In this document: positions 1 through 7,097 of the stretch, one piece after another
Position numbering within the stretch: the first letter of the stretch is position 1
Layout of the letters: each line of letters starts with the position of its first letter
Notes under the pieces: model-generated
The model's input: only the letters and a program-made list of their open reading frames with translations
Databases searched by the model: none
What the model was told of the DNA's origin: nothing
Source: Candidatus Siliceabacter maunaloa
GTDB taxonomy: Bacteria; Actinomycetota; Thermoleophilia; Solirubrobacterales; Solirubrobacteraceae
Length of the DNA stretch: 38,812 bases
NCBI GenBank assembly: GCA_024330185.1
Contig: JANDLV010000038.1
Span: 1 to 38,812 of the forward strand
Direction: 5' to 3'
Position numbers and translations under genes: made by a program

Positions 1-33
1 CGGACAGGGCGGGAGGGACCGCCGTTCAAAGTT

Positions 34-618
34 CTACGAGACTTCGGACAACCTCAGCGATTGCGTCGATCCCTCCCACGCAGACGCAAGTTCGTCGCCC
101 CTTGCGCTTGTCGCTCCGGGTCGCGACCTCCGCAAGACTCCCCGGACGAAGTCCGACGTGTGGTTGCCGATGACGCCGTCCAGCCGGGTAGCGCCCCTCT
201 GGGGCCTGTCGCCGAGCCAGGTAGCGGGCGCACCGAGGCCGGCCAACAGCCCGGCCGCGACCCGCACATCGTCCTGTTCAGCTTGGTCGAGAAGCCGTTC
301 GCGCTTGGGGAGGGCATCCGCTGCTCGGCTGACATCAGTCGCGCGGGCCCAGATGACCGGGCGGCGGGCGTTCCCTGTTTGGCCGGGGTGGAGGTCTGCC
401 TCGACGAAGGGCTCGCACGCGCTGGCAGACTGCTGGATTAGCTCGACAGCCCGTCCGATGCTTACCGAGGTCGTCACTTGTGGCTCCATATCGAGCGAGA
501 GAGGCTCGTGCCCGACAAGGCAGTCCTCTCCAGCGTTGGCGAGGAGACAGCCCAAGCCGTAAGCAGCCAGATGGGCGATGAGGAGATGTCCCGACAGCGG
601 GATTGTCCAGGTCTCCAC
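34..618 (-). CDS. Cas8-like large-subunit protein of the type I-G CRISPR operon, short or truncated
   Basis: Last visible gene of the leftward cas operon, 194 aa, GTG start three bases after the cas3 stop. The N-terminus (IPLSGHLLIAHLAAYGL) and a middle block with GLLAGLGAPATWL, then GATRLDGVIGNHTSDFV, resemble from memory the N-terminal half of the type I-G Cas8/Csx17-like subunit, which would recognise the PAM and start target unwinding in Cascade. Position beside csb1, csb2 and cas3 supports this strongly; sequence similarity is inference without a search. The frame stops at 34-36, giving a protein much shorter than a usual Cas8. The gene may be truncated, may continue in another frame beyond the window edge, or may be a split subunit; one alternative frame stays open to base 1. 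Confidence 0.55.
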   Translation of the reverse strand: METWTIPLSGHLLIAHLAAYGLGCLLANAGEDCLVGHEPLSLDMEPQVTTSVSIGRAVELIQQSASACEPFVEADLHPGQTGNARRPVIWARATDVSRAADALPKRERLLDQAEQDDVRVAAGLLAGLGAPATWLGDRPQRGATRLDGVIGNHTSDFVRGVLRRSRPGATSARGDELASAWEGSTQSLRLSEVS

Positions 619-621
619 GCG

Positions 622-3251
622 TCAACCTCCCTCTCGAGACACCTGGATGTCTGCGCAGCGCAGAAGCGCCTCAAGCAGCGCGAGCCTGTGAACTCCAAGC
701 CGCTGCTCGACCCGCGCTCGCTCGTCCTCGTACCTGCCGCTCGGGCCAAACAAACGGTCGACCCAAACCCGTACCTCGTCCGGGCATTCCGACCAGCCGT
801 CGAGTAGGTCGCCGCCCCCGCGATCGAAGATCGGCCGCCCGCGGCCGTGATGGGCCGCCACGAGCGTGATGACCAGCGGATCGCCACCGCTGGCGTACGC
901 GGCGTACGCGGCGCTGAGCTGCTCGTGGCGCCAGCCGTCTCCCCGATCGGGCCGGTGTCCTGGTCGCGGCTTGGCCAGCTCGACGCCCGTGGCACCCATC
1001 CGGCGCTGAAAGCGCGGATGGCGCTTGCCCTCATCGTGCGTATGAGCCGCGAGCTCCAGCCGGCCGCAGTCCGCCCCGAGGCCCTCGGGCGCTAGGGCAC
1101 GGAGGATCTCGCCCATCCGACGCTCCACAGCGGCCTGATGGCCGTCGACCGTCACCGCCTCGGCCGTCACCAGAGGAGTCTGCTCGGCCCGGCGCTCCAG
1201 TTCGCGCACGACCATGACGCCTGTCCGAGAGTCACCACCGCACCAGTGCAGCTCCAGATCTGTCAGGCGCCGGTGATGGCGCAGCCGGCGCGCGAGATCG
1301 GGACGGATGTCTTCCAGCACATCAGCGAGCGCCGTCCGACTTGCGCGTCCGCCAAGCGCGGGATCCTGCTCGACCAGCGGGTGGACATTCTCGGCAGACA
1401 CCACGACGATGTGATCGGATCGCTCGCCGTCGGAGACCTCCGAGAGCACGTCGTCCAACGCGCCGCCCACACCCGGACCCTCGCGGAGCCCGACCACTCC
1501 TGCCGTACAGATGCGCGCGCCGTCGGGCACGACGAGCGTGTCCCCTGAACCGAGCGGCTGGGCATCTGCCAGCTTCATCGGCTCCGTCTGACCGTCGCGT
1601 GTGCGGACGACCCACGACGCCACCTCACCGTGGTCCACCGCGCCGACGATCCGTTCCAGCGTCTTGCCCAGACGCACGGTAGCCACCTCGTGCGCGCGCG
1701 GGGGACAGGCCATCAGCACGCCGCGGACCACTCCCGCATCGAGCTCGAGATGCCGACGGGCGACGATTCCCACATCGGGGAGCACACGTTCGGGATCGTC
1801 CAGATAGAGCGCTACATCTGGGTCGGCGCCGAGCACGTCACTCGTCATAGCGAGGGTCTCTAGGTCGACTCCCCGCAACGCGGGCAGAGGCGGGCGATCG
1901 GGCAGAGGCAGCGTGGACGCGGCGACCTCCTCGGGCGAGATGCTGCCGCCGAGTCCGTCGAGCCAGCGAGCGGCGGCGATCAGCTCCTCCTGCTCGTAGG
2001 GCCCGATGTTTCGCGGCAGCCCATCCGCGCCCGCGGTGCGCAGCAAGCCTTCGGGGCTGACGACGACGAAGGTCGAGGAGGCCAAGCGTCCGGAACGATT
2101 GAGGCGCCCGGCGCGTTGGGCGAGCGCAGACGCCGACGCGATCGTACTGACCATGGCCGGCAGATCGAGATCGACGCCGACCTCGAGTGACTGGGTTGAT
2201 ACGAGGAAGTCGACGTCGTCGTTGCCGGCGGCCGTCAGCAGTCCAGGTCGGCGCGCGCGCAGCCGGCTAACGTCGGCTCGCCGCAGGCGCCCGCAGACAA
2301 GCTCCACCTTCTGACCATCGCGGTCGCCGAGCGCTGCGGCGACATCCAGGGCCATCGGCACGTCGTTGACAAACACTCCGACAGTGCCCTGTCCAGCGGC
2401 CAGGCGCGCGTGTTCGACGACGGCCTTCGTCGCGTCTTTACGCCAGTCGTCCACCTCGACCACTTCGATCCTCTTCACTGCTTGGACCCTGCGCGCCAAC
2501 CTCCCGTCCTGGAGATCCTCCGCGCTCAGGCCAGCCTGGCTCGCCGCTGGTGACCGGGTGGCGCTCATGGCCACCACTTGGAGTCCCATGGCGGTGGGCG
2601 ATCGAGCGGCGACGTTTCTCGCCGTCTCGACCAAGCGCTCATGCAGATGCGCCTCGTCGATGACGACGACTGCGTCCTGGCCGACCATCCCCGCCTCGTG
2701 GTTGCGCGAAGCACGTGACGCGCCATAGCCGCGAAGCAGCAGGCGTGACCCCCACATCTGCGGAGTGGCGCAGATGACCTGACAGGCGGCCGGCTCCAGC
2801 CGCCACCCATCTTCGAGCTGCACACCACCACGAAGACGCCAGGCCGCGAGCGGAGCGGCCTCGCCTTCGGTGGGAGACGACGTGACGAGCCTCAGAAGGG
2901 CACCGGCCACCTCGGCGTCGAGGGAGCCATCCTCCTTCCGTACCGCCGCCCCGCTGAGGATCCGCGCCAAGACCGTGGCGCGGTCGTACTGGTCGTCGAC
3001 GAGGACACGCCGGGGGGCGACGAGCACGAGCCGGCGCGGCGGTCGTTCGGCAAGCCGGCCCGCGGCATGCTCGGCAACAAGAAAGACGTGGGCGTCGATC
3101 ACCGAAGACTTCCCGAGCCGGTGGGCGCCGCGATGTCCGGCCACCGGCCGCTGCGGGCGACCTGCTCCACCAGCGCCCGCTGCCAGGGGTAGGGTCGCTG
3201 ACCGTCGTTCACCGCGGCGAAGAAGTCTGCGAAGCGCTCCCCGATGCTCAC
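622..3251 (-). pseudogene. cas3: Cas3 helicase-HD nuclease of type I-G, reading frame broken in Walker A
   Basis: ATP-dependent helicase and nuclease that degrades DNA opened by Cascade. The natural start is GTG at 3251-3249, overlapping the csb2 stop (GTGA). From there 47 residues read ERFADFFAAVNDGQRPYPWQ and end in APTGSG. The frame must then shift by one base at about 3111 to continue as GKSSVIDAHVF; the remaining 829 residues are open to 622. That part contains the DEAH box (VVVIDEAHL), MSATR, the SLEVGVDLD block and the QRAGRLNRSGR motif VI. A C-terminal HD domain follows (HTHDEGKRHPRFQ, WRHEQLSAAY, VAAHHGRGRP). Helicase first and HD last is the I-G arrangement. Restored length is about 876 aa. 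Without correction the GTG start gives only a ~50-aa peptide; the same downstream frame is also open upstream to 3345 but lacks the conserved N-terminus. A real mutation and a sequencing error are both possible. Confidence 0.85.
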
Positions 3252-4732
3252 GGTGCACCATCCTCGACGGGTACGAGCAGCCCGCCGCCCAGGTGGCGGG
3301 CCCGTCCCAGCGCGAGCAGCCCACCTGGCGCCGGCGCCAGGTCACCGAGCGTCACGCGGGCGTCGACGGCGACCATGAGGTCGCCAGGCGGGGCGCGGTG
3401 GACGAACTGCGATGCGCTCCCGGCCACACGACGACCTCGTGCCTGCACATCACGATCGCGCAGCTCGGTCACGAGCCCCTGGCGAAAACCCCAGCCCCTC
3501 CCCCACGCCACGCCCTGGTCTTCGAGGACGCCGCGCAGCGCGTAGCCGACCGAGCAGAGGACCGCGTCGTCGAGACTCCACAGCCCGCGCCGCGGCGTAC
3601 CGGCCGTGTCGAGAACCATGGGCACCACCGTGGCCAGATCGGTTCCCTCAGCGGACCAGAAGGGCATGGCGGGGCCGATCGCCGGTGGCTCCAGGTGTAG
3701 CTCGCGTCGACCCAGGCCGACCGTCGGCCTGCTGTCGAGCGCATCGAGCAGCGTGGCCCTGTCGGCTTCGGGCACGCCGGCCGGAAGACCCAACACCAAT
3801 CCGGGCGTCTCACCGGCGGCACCTGGGAGGAGATGAATGGCCAGGTGCCCCGGTCCCCGCAGCGGCCCGTCGCCGTCGCGGCCGCTGACGAACGCGGGCA
3901 CATCCGTCCCGATCGCCGCCACGATCGCGCGATGAACCGCCACGGCGACGGCCACCCGACGGTCGAGCCGCAGCGCCCAGCGCGGCAACCGAGCGCTGAA
4001 CTTCACCTGCCAGGCCTCTGCGAACGGCCAGGAGCCGGCGATCGGCGCGCGCGCGAAGCGCCGCAGCTCGGTGGCCTCCTCGCCGGCGCTCTCGACCGGC
4101 TGGTCAGCGGCCTGCTTGCTCTGGGGGCCCGATACGTGGCGGCCGGCTCTGAGAGCGCGTCGATGCGCCGTGGCCAGTGCGTCGAACCGCCCCGCAGTCG
4201 CTATCCGCAGGGGGCGTCCGGGTCCACGACCCGGAAGGCGCACGAGAACACCCGGAGCCTCAGCATCCATGTCGCCGAGCGAAACGGTCACGATCGCCGT
4301 ACTGTCCGCGCGCCCCACGTGCGTGACCTCGGGCGCAAGCTCCTGCAGGCTCTCGAGAACGGCCCGCCCCGGAGCGGGCCACCCGTACGTGATCGGGCCG
4401 TCGAGTGCGCAGAGCGGCTCGAAGTCCGTCTCGTTCGCATGATTCACCGCGGCGCGAAGCCGGTAGCGGCGCGCGCGGTAGGCCACCGAGCGCGTCCCCG
4501 GCGGGATGATCCCGAGCGGCTCGTGTTCCTCGAGCCAGCGCACCGCGCCGCGGTGCGCTTTTTGGGCTTCGAGCACACGGCCCTCGACGGTCGCATACGG
4601 GCCACCGGCCGCCGCAGCTACGAACGCGGCGTGAAGCCGGGCGGGTGACGGCAGTTCCTCCGGCGCCCCAAGCTCACCTCCACTGTAGGCACCGCGCGGG
4701 AACGCCACGCGAATGAGCAGCGCTTCGGACAT
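3248..4732 (-). CDS. csb2: Csb2 (Cas5-Cas6 fusion, GSU0054 family) of type I-G Cascade
   Basis: 494 aa, second gene of the leftward operon, starting at ATG 4732 only five bases after the csb1 stop and ending in a GTGA overlap with cas3, so the three are probably translationally coupled. The start LLIRVAFPRGAYSGG followed by ELPSPARLHAAFVAAA is typical of the Cas5-like half of GSU0054 proteins; later blocks include PITYGWPAP and PSPARLHAAF-like RAMP segments, and a C-terminal half that in the family carries the Cas6-like fold. The family provides both the crRNA 5' handle cap and crRNA processing in I-G systems, which lack a separate cas6. Assignment rests on sequence pattern plus gene order; the catalytic residue for processing cannot be named from sequence alone. 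Confidence 0.85.
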   Translation of the reverse strand: MSEALLIRVAFPRGAYSGGELGAPEELPSPARLHAAFVAAAAGGPYATVEGRVLEAQKAHRGAVRWLEEHEPLGIIPPGTRSVAYRARRYRLRAAVNHANETDFEPLCALDGPITYGWPAPGRAVLESLQELAPEVTHVGRADSTAIVTVSLGDMDAEAPGVLVRLPGRGPGRPLRIATAGRFDALATAHRRALRAGRHVSGPQSKQAADQPVESAGEEATELRRFARAPIAGSWPFAEAWQVKFSARLPRWALRLDRRVAVAVAVHRAIVAAIGTDVPAFVSGRDGDGPLRGPGHLAIHLLPGAAGETPGLVLGLPAGVPEADRATLLDALDSRPTVGLGRRELHLEPPAIGPAMPFWSAEGTDLATVVPMVLDTAGTPRRGLWSLDDAVLCSVGYALRGVLEDQGVAWGRGWGFRQGLVTELRDRDVQARGRRVAGSASQFVHRAPPGDLMVAVDARVTLGDLAPAPGGLLALGRARHLGGGLLVPVEDGAP

Positions 4733-4737
4733 CTCGG

Positions 4738-5907
4738 CTATCCGACGGCGTCGTCCGCGGTGGCGTCGTCCGCGCCGCGGTTGAGTGCAGGGTCACCCGT
4801 CACCGCCTGGATCTGCCCCGTCCATTCGAGCCGGGCGGGAAGACGGTCGATCGCCTCGCGCAGGTGCGCCCCACAGGCATCGATGGAGAGGTCCAGCTCG
4901 ATCTCCTGGTCGTCGAGGATCACCCGTGCTCGGGGGGCTGCCACGTCGCAGTACGCACGCAGGTCGGGGTCGGCATCGGCATAGGCATTGCCGAGCAGCA
5001 GCAGCGCCAGGAGGGCCCCGCGGCCCGCCACGTCGTCCTCCTCATTGCCACCGAAGCGCAGGCGCCGCAGTCCCGCCAGTGAAAGCGTGCGCGCCCGGTG
5101 AACGGCCGGTACCGACACGCCGTGGGGGGTCTCCGTCCCGGGTGGGATCCCACCGAGATTGAGTTTGGAGGCCGAGAGCGTCTCCGCCTTCTTCTTTCGC
5201 GCTGCATCCGCATCCTTCTCGACCTGCTCGACCAGTTTCGGACTGAGATGCTCCCGCTGGCGGTCGACCAGGGCGTCGAGTTCGTCCGGCGTGACATAAA
5301 AGTCCTGTCCCAGGGGATCCAGGCGCGCGCCCGAGCGCCGCGACACCGGATCGACGCCAGCTACGACCCCGAACAGCTCAGACACGAGCAGGCCGCGCAA
5401 CCTTAGTTGCCCTGTCTTGCGACTCGAGTCCCAGCCGCCGAACGCCAACGTGGCAGGCGACGTCACGAACACGGGCGAGAGGTCCGCGTGTGTCGCATCC
5501 CGTAGCGCCCGGTACCACGATCCGTCGACCACGGGACTGCCGTCCTGCCTTGCGAAACGGATGTGCGCATCGAAGGCGCGATGGGGCAACCGCAGGTCGC
5601 TGAGCGCTTCGCGTCCCTCGTAGGCTACCTCGATGATGGGGACTCTTGCCGCCGCCTCGCTGGAACGCCGTGCCGTGGCAAGTCCCTCCTCAGCGCGGTT
5701 GCTCTGCGACTGCTTGGAGTCAATCAGCGCGGTGCGCCGAAACTCCCCGTCCACGTATCTGGTTTCGAACACGAACTCGGATCCGTTGCGCCCCGCGTAG
5801 CGGGCCGGCGCGATGACCGCGCCGTCGACGACGGCGTAGGTCGCCGGGTGGTTGAGCGTGGCCGCTCCTCCCCGGCGCAGGTGGTCGTATAGCTCTGTGA
5901 GTTCCAA
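4738..5907 (-). CDS. csb1: Csb1 (Cas7-like backbone, GSU0053 family) of type I-G Cascade
   Basis: 389 aa, first gene of the operon. The start is TTG at 5907 with a good Shine-Dalgarno (GAGAGGAG, about five bases upstream). GSU0053/Csb1 hallmarks are clear: DSKQSQSNRAEEGL near residue 63, the LRLPHRAFDAHIRF segment near residue 105, FGGWDSSRKTGQLRLRGL near residue 155, and a basic stretch rich in Lys near residue 240. Csb1 polymerises along the crRNA as the Cascade backbone. It lies about 240 bases from the two-repeat CRISPR unit on its 5' side. The frame is intact and of normal family length, unlike cas3 downstream. Confidence 0.9.
   Translation of the reverse strand: MELTELYDHLRRGGAATLNHPATYAVVDGAVIAPARYAGRNGSEFVFETRYVDGEFRRTALIDSKQSQSNRAEEGLATARRSSEAAARVPIIEVAYEGREALSDLRLPHRAFDAHIRFARQDGSPVVDGSWYRALRDATHADLSPVFVTSPATLAFGGWDSSRKTGQLRLRGLLVSELFGVVAGVDPVSRRSGARLDPLGQDFYVTPDELDALVDRQREHLSPKLVEQVEKDADAARKKKAETLSASKLNLGGIPPGTETPHGVSVPAVHRARTLSLAGLRRLRFGGNEEDDVAGRGALLALLLLGNAYADADPDLRAYCDVAAPRARVILDDQEIELDLSIDACGAHLREAIDRLPARLEWTGQIQAVTGDPALNRGADDATADDAVG
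5878..5907 (-). promoter_or_regulatory. csb1 initiation site: TTG start with strong Shine-Dalgarno
   Basis: On the minus strand GAGAGGAG is followed five bases later by TTG GAA CTC. No ATG or GTG in this frame gives a better start, and Csb1 proteins begin close to this sequence. The whole effector operon may be read from a promoter between here and the CRISPR unit; I see no convincing -35/-10 pair. Confidence 0.4.
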
Positions 5908-6148
5908 CTGGGCTCCTCTCGAATGCCGCTGGTAGCAAGTTGCTGAGGAACGGTCGTTCTGACCCGCCAGATCCTGACAAGCTCACTTTCGGCGAAGTAG
6001 AATCCATACCTCCGTGGCCCACGCCCACTCCGCTCTGCGCGTAACGACAGTCACGCTGGCTTTCCGCTCACGAACCCGGCGCGATATCCTTCCGGGGACC
6101 TCTATGTAGAAGCTGGTTGGCCAGTGTCCCGAGGCCTTGACGGCGGCT

Positions 6149-6254
6149 CCCTCGACGAACCCGCCGTCGCCGGCTCTTCGGACCCGGTGATGTGGTGCGA
6201 GCGGAGCTCGAGGCGCAGCCCTCGACGAACCCGCCGTCGCCGGCTCTTCGGACC
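6149..6254. CRISPR. Minimal CRISPR array: two identical 36-bp repeats and one 34-bp spacer
   Basis: Bases 6149-6184 and 6219-6254 are identical over 36 positions (begin CCCTCGACGAACCC, end GGCTCTTCGGACC) and are separated by a unique 34-bp spacer at 6185-6218. Sequence outside the two copies is unrelated, so this is repeat-spacer-repeat and not a longer tandem duplication. Each repeat can form a small hairpin, GCCG-TCGC-CGGC on the plus strand. It sits between the csb1 start (5907) and a rightward nucleotidyltransferase module, as expected for a CRISPR next to its effector operon. No third or degenerate copy is found at the same 70-bp spacing on either side. Transcription direction and leader cannot be decided here. 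It may be the decayed end of an array or a minimal array; the main array could lie outside the window. Confidence 0.8.
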
Positions 6255-6283
6255 GGCTCCGATGACTACCATTGGACGCGCAG

Positions 6284-6589
6284 ATGTCCGCACATGACCT
6301 CCTCCTGTCTGCGTCCGCGCAGCTTCCCGGCGCGGACATCGTCGCGCAAGGGGTCGACGACCTCGGTCGCGGAGTCGAGAGCATCGCGGGTCTGGTAGTC
6401 GCAACTGCGGCGCCTCGCCTCATGGATGTCGGGGTCTCCGTTCCGGAGATCGCACTGCCGCTCCCCTCTCACCGGCTCTACGAACTCCTCTCTTCCGAGG
6501 ACCCCGCCTCGGCGCACAGCCGCTACAACGCGCTCCTGCGCAGAGTCGTCAGCTTTGCTCGTGCGGCCGAGCATGCGGCCGCCGGTTGA
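6284..6589 (+). CDS. Small partner protein of a DUF6036-type nucleotidyltransferase module (putative antitoxin)
   Basis: 101 aa from ATG 6284; an in-frame TTG at 6272 would add four residues. It reads MSAHDLLLSASAQLPGA, contains two moderately hydrophobic helical stretches and a basic, helical C-terminal third, and ends 17 bases inside the next gene, so the two are translated together. I recognise no catalytic motif. Small proteins of this kind often precede DUF6036 nucleotidyltransferases in actinobacteria, and a toxin-antitoxin role is inferred from that arrangement only. It begins 30 bases after the CRISPR unit and diverges from the cas operon. Confidence 0.6.
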   Translation: MSAHDLLLSASAQLPGADIVAQGVDDLGRGVESIAGLVVATAAPRLMDVGVSVPEIALPLPSHRLYELLSSEDPASAHSRYNALLRRVVSFARAAEHAAAG

Positions 6590-7097
6590 CGCGGATCGCG
6601 TACACGCCTTCGCCCGCGCACTCGGTCGCGAGGCCCGCGTCCATATGACGATGTACCTGACCGGTGGCGCCACCGCGGTGCTCTCGGGGTGGCGGGCGAT
6701 GACCGTCGACGTCGACATTCGCCTCGAGCCGGACCGTGAGTCAGACGTGCTGCTCCGTCATGTGCCGGCGTTGAAGGAGCGACTCGGAGTGAATGTGGAG
6801 CTTGTGTCGCCGCCCGATTTCATTCCCGAGCTGCCGGCTTGGCGCGAACGAAGCCCATACCTCTTCACCGAAGGTCTCCTCGACGTACGCCACTTCGACC
6901 CCTACTCCCAGGCGCTCTGCAAGCTCGAGCGAGCGTTCGCGCATGACTTGGCCGACGTGGAGGCGATGGTCGGTGCTGGCATGGTCGAACCGTCCCGTGC
7001 TCTCGCGCTGTTCGAGACGATCGAGCCGCTGCTGTTTCGCTACCCCGCTATCGACCCCGGTGCCTTTCGAGCCCGCGTCGAGCGCGTGCTCGCGTAG
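6573..7097 (+). CDS. DUF6036-like nucleotidyltransferase (putative toxin-antitoxin component)
   Basis: 174 aa if started at ATG 6573, which overlaps the upstream gene by 17 bases. Diagnostic features: YLTGGATAVLSGW then TVDVDIRLEP, the nucleotidyltransferase-fold pattern with paired Asp in the DVDIR strand; then LKERLGVNVELVSPPDFIPE, SPYLFTEGLLDVRHFDPY, CKLERAFAHDLADVEAMV and PLLFRYPAIDP. These blocks match the DUF6036/AbiEii-like nucleotidyltransferase family as I remember it. Such enzymes typically transfer nucleotides to RNA or protein targets and often act as toxins in two-gene modules. The gene ends eight bases before the convergent nirD stop. Confidence 0.75.
   Translation: MRPPVDADRVHAFARALGREARVHMTMYLTGGATAVLSGWRAMTVDVDIRLEPDRESDVLLRHVPALKERLGVNVELVSPPDFIPELPAWRERSPYLFTEGLLDVRHFDPYSQALCKLERAFAHDLADVEAMVGAGMVEPSRALALFETIEPLLFRYPAIDPGAFRARVERVLA

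What the first reader, a model, noticed from the sequence alone, without database searches (positions are those of the whole stretch)
6149..6254. Single-spacer CRISPR unit next to a type I-G effector operon
Two perfect 36-bp repeats, one 34-bp spacer, right upstream of csb1. Such a minimal unit is easily missed by array finders that require three repeats. It may be a relic, a reduced array, or a regulatory mini-array acting on the operon or on the neighbouring nucleotidyltransferase module.
Basis: seen in the sequence. Interest (0 to 1): 0.75.

Follow-up and report, generated by a model that had tools for sequence, protein, structure and literature searches.

The report
One-spacer mini-CRISPR beside type I-G operon
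A bacterium carries a tiny two-repeat CRISPR unit just ahead of its type I-G immune genes; its repeats differ from those of the genome's real array, and comparison with relatives suggests that it grew out of the small guide units that some such systems keep near these genes, although its own guide has no recognisable target.

Summary
Confirmed: two identical 36-nt repeats (6149-6184, 6219-6254) flank a 34-nt spacer, 241 nt upstream of csb1 and on its strand; no other copy was found in the assembly. Its 3' end is an I-G repeat handle in register, so it is a CRISPR unit of the I-G locus. It is not a piece of the main array: that array, on contig C49, has a repeat that agrees at 17 of 36 positions (3 of 18 in the 5' half), and the unit lacks its leader and most of its hairpin. 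It is an ectopic, degenerate mini-CRISPR. In 8 of 20 related csb1 loci an ectopic I-G handle near csb1 is followed by a guide that partly matches a nearby TAN-flanked site, as in CreR/CreTA; shuffled handles give 0.025 of 20 on average, 15 other PAMs 0-3 of 20, and 0 of 142 other regions exceed 10.25 (criteria set after three cases had been seen). The window's spacer has no TAN target there and no convincing hit elsewhere. Best reading: a CreR-type repeat that degenerated and was then duplicated by one spacer insertion; probably no autorepressor today. New variant of a known kind.

The parts
6219..6254 (-). Repeat A (upstream copy in csb1 orientation), ectopic degenerate I-G repeat
   Evidence: Identical to repeat B, 36 of 36; handle TTCGTCGAGG in register with I-G repeats
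6185..6218 (-). 34-nt spacer
   Evidence: Length within the 33-37 nt of the 20 spacers of the main array; no target or origin found
6149..6184 (-). Repeat B (copy nearer to csb1)
5908..6148 (-). 241-nt interval between the unit and csb1; no site matching the guide next to a TAN PAM above chance
4738..5907 (-). csb1 (Cas7g)
   Evidence: PF09617 E 2.9e-30, TIGR02570 above cut-off
3248..4732 (-). csb2 (Cas5-Cas6 fusion, Cas56g)
   Evidence: TIGR02165 above cut-off; PADLOC Cas56g
622..3345 (-). cas3g
   Evidence: TIGR02621 above cut-off; PADLOC Cas3g
1..618 (-). 5' part of a Cas8g-like gene (csx17 position), cut by the contig end
   Evidence: No family match of its own; 47% identical to L045:15298-16317, which matches PADLOC Cas8g at E 2.1e-9; the rest of the gene lies on C49
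6272..6589 (+). Small gene P0002 of the neighbouring two-gene module, divergent from csb1
   Evidence: Found before P0003 homologues in relatives; no family match
6570..7097 (+). P0003, nucleotidyltransferase-like (weak DUF6036)
   Evidence: DUF6036 E 0.016, 15.4 bits against a cut-off of 23.6; homologues in 10 of 100 other relatives

Best explanation
The unit is an ectopic mini-CRISPR of the type I-G locus and not a fragment of its present array. Most likely course (inferred): the locus held a single repeat-like element upstream of csb1, of the kind that some related I-G loci have (a CreR-type psi-repeat). Its hairpin arm degenerated while the crRNA handle was kept. Then an adaptation complex inserted one 34-nt spacer at it and so copied the already degenerate repeat exactly. 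Working today (inferred): if transcribed on the csb1 strand, the conserved handle could still load a guide into the I-G effector, but the hairpin is poor and the guide matches no promoter nearby; at most it is one memory of unknown target, and it is probably not a repressor of cas or of the nucleotidyltransferase pair. Shown: anatomy, handle homology, a different cognate repeat, no main-array leader, no detected target. Not shown: transcription, processing, the ancestral single repeat, origin of the spacer.
For: Exactly 36 nt, the length of the I-G repeats of the relatives, is duplicated, and flanks are not. The spacer (34 nt) fits the 33-37 nt of the 20 main-array spacers. Last 18 nt match the cognate repeat at 14 of 18 and G033 at 16 of 18, first 18 nt the cognate at 3 of 18. 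Both copies share the same departure (5 of 8 canonical stem pairs against 8 of 8 in five related repeats), so the departure came before the duplication. Same-family genome G055/L040 has a lone repeat-like element with the exact 16-nt end of its own repeat, 183 nt upstream of csb1 on the csb1 strand; same-family L042 has one at -178 on the other strand. Ectopic handles with aimed guides in 8 of 20 related loci.
Against: No ancestor with a single repeat at this very site has been seen. The main-array leader motif is absent in the 70 nt before the unit, which normal acquisition would want. The cas4-cas1 gene of this system reads in two frames, broken inside the Cas1 part, so present acquisition may be impaired, unless this is an assembly error or the second system's Cas1 did it. 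In the predicted fold the handle is paired. No sigma-70-like promoter on the minus strand between 5880 and 6650. The L040 element shows no target above chance either (P 0.35-0.41).
Confidence: 0.45

Rival explanations
1. Relic of an older or foreign I-G array with its own repeat, shrunk to two repeats and one spacer.
For: The repeat is nearer to the G033 array repeat (26 of 36) than to its own array (17 of 36), as an older repeat version would be. Perfect identity of two copies is normal for an array.
Against: No array with this repeat in the own assembly or, for a 26-nt piece, in 232 genomes of the order. The canonical hairpin that 5 of 5 related array repeats keep is lost in both copies alike. 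No leader.
Confidence: 0.22
2. Working CreR- or CreA-like regulatory mini-CRISPR: its guide takes the I-G complex to the csb1 or nucleotidyltransferase promoter and represses it.
For: Place, strand, degenerate repeats with conserved handle, and the class in 8 of 20 related loci, one of them (L042) in the same family. The -35 region of the presumed nucleotidyltransferase promoter would fall in repeat A (read by eye).
Against: No target: P against shuffled guides 0.16-0.92, 0.53, 0.665 with TAN; TAN score 0 and 7.25, within the control range. With other PAMs the window reaches 11.25 (CGN) and 11.0 (GAN), as noise does elsewhere (0-3 of 20 loci). No genome site with TAN and full seed. The two repeats are identical, whereas psiR1 and psiR2 of known CreTA diverge (PMC8501985 passages, PMC9458426 abstract).
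Confidence: 0.2
3. Not CRISPR-derived: a GC-rich self-complementary duplicated element that resembles a handle by chance.
For: The 36-mer can fold on itself through the handle (-15.5 kcal/mol, z -1.39); look-alikes of its 26-nt piece at 2-3 mismatches occur in 25 other genomes of 232.
Against: 36-nt length, 34-nt spacer, handle register and position at the I-G operon agree; best match 20 of 22 against 17 of 22 elsewhere in the window.
Confidence: 0.1

Closest known systems
CreR (cas-regulating RNA) mini-CRISPRs, described for I-B, I-E and V-A (PMC13131331, one passage)
   Same: Tiny unit next to the cas operon, repeats degenerate against the cognate array
   Different: No promoter target found; the two repeats are identical; subtype I-G
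CreTA (CRISPR-regulated toxin-antitoxin; I-B and I-F in PMC8501985, PMC9458426 and the abstract start of PMC10097628)
   Same: Ectopic degenerate repeats beside a cas operon, a toxin-like gene pair next door
   Different: No guide match to a toxin promoter; repeats identical; the gene pair occurs elsewhere without repeats
Type I-G CRISPR array (here the 20-spacer array on C49)
   Same: 36-nt repeat length, spacer length, handle
   Different: Only 17 of 36 repeat positions shared, no such leader, hairpin mostly lost
New arrays made by off-site spacer integration (recalled; phrases searched, no paper read)
   Same: A spacer flanked by an exact copy of a repeat-like target
   Different: Here the proposed target is a psi-repeat beside the cas operon; inferred only

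Membership tests
Type I-G CRISPR array | Identical repeats with a spacer of normal length beside I-G cas genes | tested here: met
   36 of 36, spacer 34 nt, Cas7g/Cas56g/Cas3g beside it
Type I-G CRISPR array | Repeat of the cognate array | tested here: not met
   17 of 36
Type I-G CRISPR array | Hairpin followed by an unpaired handle | tested here: not met
   5 of 8 stem pairs; the predicted fold pairs the handle
Type I-G CRISPR array | Leader before the first repeat | tested here: not met
   Main-array leader motif not seen in the 70 nt before the unit
CreR | Degenerate ectopic repeat unit near the cas operon | tested here: met
CreR | Guide seed matches the cas promoter next to a PAM | tested here: not met
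CreR | crRNA-like transcript that represses cas genes | not testable with these tools
   No RNA data
CreTA | psiR1 and psiR2 divergent from each other | tested here: not met
   Identical
CreTA | Guide matches the promoter of a neighbouring toxin gene | tested here: not met
Array born by off-site spacer integration | Empty site with one repeat in a relative | tested here: inconclusive
   L040/G055 has a lone repeat-like element near csb1 but not the same sequence or context; the one same-genus genome, G001, had no csb1 match

The most novel reading that the evidence does not exclude
Guide units aimed at nearby promoters (CreR/CreTA-like) are a regular part of one branch of actinobacterial type I-G systems, and the window shows such a regulatory repeat turned into a nascent immune array: a degenerate CreR-type repeat that received a spacer and was thereby duplicated. 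That would link regulatory psi-repeats and arrays in the direction opposite to the usual 'array decays into regulator'.
Probability: 0.25. Interest if true: 0.75.

Novelty: new variant of a known kind. Interest (0 to 1): 0.5.

Why it matters
If a psi-repeat can be re-armed by a spacer insertion, regulatory and immune CRISPR units can turn into each other, and array finders that want three repeats miss that step. The comparison also gives a concrete, testable claim: a branch of type I-G systems carries guides aimed at sites upstream of csb1 or of small ORFs, with a TAN PAM. Type I-G is not among the subtypes named for CreR or CreTA in the passages that I saw. The primary CreR paper was not read (recalled only) and may list more subtypes.

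Tried and rejected
Main array missing, or with the same repeat as the unit: rejected after the rest of the operon and the array were found on C49. Unit as part of the nucleotidyltransferase module: rejected, six relatives of that module have no I-G repeat upstream. Unit as CreR/CreA through its spacer, or through the sequence after repeat B (P 0.21, 0.065 with TAN): no convincing target. L040/G055 lone repeat as CreR: a TAC site with 6 of 7 seed bases lies at -318 near a TTGACT-N17-TAATGT promoter (by eye), but shuffled guides do as well (P 0.41 and 0.35); left open. Spacer origin: no exact 21-mer in viral contigs, best E 0.2 in phages and 0.1 in plasmids, no own-genome match other than itself (24 nt, up to 3 mismatches); 4 of the 20 main-array spacers tried for comparison also had no viral hit, so this says little. 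Rfam: none at E 1 or better in 5800-6700. A look-alike of the leader end (GAGCCGG) before the unit was dropped: that 7-mer occurs about once per kb. A sequence-only profile of 13 I-G repeats was built and not used.

Looser test, PAM-free, whole loci, own handle: of 11 loci of the other I-G branch with a known array, 2 (L127 11.5, L129 11.0) exceed the best of six shuffled handles, at sites 4-5 kb from csb1 without TAN; 5 further loci without an array were not tested. Of 8 loci of the window's branch in that call, 4 (L040, L046, L048, L053) exceed their shuffles, only L048 (13.25) clearly. The claim of 8 of 20 therefore rests on the csb1-upstream, TAN-restricted test. Its criteria were fixed after three Bifidobacterium cases had been seen and seven; the controls used the same criteria, but it is not a blind test, and the control regions come from the same loci. 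L046 (10.25) only equals the best control region and is not counted.

Full report
Observation. The flanks of the copies differ, so only the 36 nt are duplicated. With up to 3 mismatches the 36-mer occurs twice in the assembly, both times here.

Surroundings. On the minus strand run csb1 (4738-5907), csb2 (3248-4732), cas3g (622-3345) and a gene cut by the contig end (1-618). The window is a whole contig, C53, of a 120-contig assembly. The missing operon part is at the right end of contig C49: the rest of the cut gene (Cas8g-like through its relative in L045), cas4-cas1 and cas2. That the two contig ends adjoin is inferred from the split gene. The array follows in C49 from 40,892 down to about 39,448: 21 repeat positions, 18 of them identical to the consensus over 36 nt and three (39,834, 39,553 and the terminal 39,483) scoring 26 of 36 without gaps, with 20 spacers of 33-37 nt. 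Its distance and order fit the relatives, in which the array lies 7-9 kb downstream of csb1. A second I-G system with a different repeat and a 71-repeat array lies on the same contig. Kinship: G022 and G033, same family as the window genome, have the contig lengths and places of the records of Conexibacter arvalis (L042) and a Solirubrobacteraceae MAG (L045), so the genome is a Solirubrobacterales (inferred).

What the repeat is. Arrays of four related loci give I-G repeats that end in TTCATCGAGG or TTCATAGAGG plus one base. The window repeat, read with csb1, ends TTCGTCGAGGG in the same register. Its last 22 nt match the G033 repeat at 20 of 22; the next best place in the window reaches 17. 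Against its own array it matches 17 of 36 (3 of 18 in the first half, 14 of 18 in the second). Of the eight canonical stem pairs it keeps five, the related repeats eight, and the predicted fold pairs the handle. The main-array leader motif is not found before it. So it is an ectopic, degenerate I-G mini-CRISPR.

Comparison. A scan of genome contigs gave 20 csb1 loci. In 4 of 20 an exact TTCRTYGAGG lies on the csb1 strand within 700 nt upstream; 0.012 are expected per 700 nt from 5 hits in 292,062 nt of background. A systematic scan paired ectopic handles on either strand with the following guide and TAN-flanked sites in 1 kb upstream of csb1. It gives 8 of 20 loci at 11 or more: L042, L047, L048, L049, L051, L056, L058, L059. 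Shuffled handles gave 0.025 of 20 on average over 40 permutations (one permutation with one locus), and the 15 other PAM dinucleotides 0-3 of 20. Of 142 other regions of the same loci none exceeds 10.25. TAN is the predicted I-G PAM of Bifidobacterium (PMC7284854, passages; there from few protospacer hits). Targets lie at -77 (L042), -82 (L058), -147 (L051), -225 (L056), -280 (L047), -420 (L059), -526 (L049) and -705 (L048) from the start of the csb1 match, which in L047, L048, L051 and L056 is not the start codon (query residues 29, 13, 13 and 30). Downstream of the L059 and L049 targets lie ORFs of 25 and 17 codons with a ribosome-binding-like sequence; L047 has one of 46 codons. Overlap with promoter-like boxes was seen by eye only (L048, L049, L059). 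These are CreR-like and CreTA-like arrangements; no function is shown. In the other I-G branch the looser scan of 11 loci gave no TAN target near csb1.

The window's unit against that background. It has the place, the strand, the degenerate repeat and the handle, but no target: P against shuffled guides is 0.16-0.92, 0.53 and 0.665 with TAN; its TAN score is 7.25 and 0 under the stricter handle limit. With CGN and GAN it reaches 11.25 and 11.0, which is what wrong PAMs do in the other loci too. There is no site in the genome with TAN and the full 10-base seed and no match of its first 24 nt with up to 3 mismatches except itself. Viral, phage and plasmid searches gave nothing convincing, but neither did four main-array spacers in viral contigs.

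Reading. Both copies share the same departure from the canonical repeat, so that departure came before the duplication, and the duplicated length and spacer length are those of I-G adaptation. The simplest course is one spacer insertion into a lone degenerate repeat of the kind seen near csb1 in L040 and L042. This is inferred. Against it stand the absent leader and a cas4-cas1 gene that reads in two frames with the break inside Cas1; a relic of an older array is the main rival. It works at most like a one-spacer array. It is not filed as CreR or CreTA, since the promoter match was tested and not met, nor as an ordinary I-G array, since the cognate repeat, hairpin and leader were tested and not met.

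Literature seen: PMC12737573 (passages), PMC13131331 (one passage), PMC9458426 (abstract, introduction, passages), PMC8501985 (passages), PMC7284854 (passages), PMC12838274 (passages), PMC10097628 (start of abstract in a listing). The original CreR paper and the off-site integration work are recalled only.

Noticed in passing
L042, L047, L048, L049, L051, L056, L058, L059, 1 kb upstream of csb1: Ectopic I-G handles followed by guides that partly match a nearby TAN-flanked site: CreR/CreTA-like units in 8 of 20 type I-G loci.
   Followed up: partly
L049 about -431 and L059 about -335 upstream of csb1: Small ORFs of 17 and 25 codons (the first strongly hydrophobic) just downstream of the targeted sites: candidate CreT-like genes.
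   Followed up: no
L040 (G055) -183 to -148 upstream of csb1: A lone repeat-like element with the exact 16-nt end of that genome's own repeat, after a TTGACT-N17-TAATGT promoter-like pair seen by eye.
   Followed up: partly
G000:C49:25881-35817 (L019) and C49:39448-43393 with window 1-5907: Two different type I-G systems side by side in one genome, with 71-repeat and 21-repeat arrays.
   Followed up: partly
G000:C49:41376-43287 (L065): cas4-cas1 of the window's system reads in two overlapping frames, broken within the Cas1 part; frameshift or assembly error.
   Followed up: partly
G000:C49:40328-39834 (L065): Two main-array spacers (beginning GTCAGTCACG and GACCTGACGG) each occur twice in the array.
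   Followed up: no
window 6266-7097 and L077-L082: Two-gene nucleotidyltransferase-like module in other Solirubrobacterales; a TANNAT box right before the start codon seen by eye in the window and in 4 of 6 relatives suggests leaderless transcription.
   Followed up: partly
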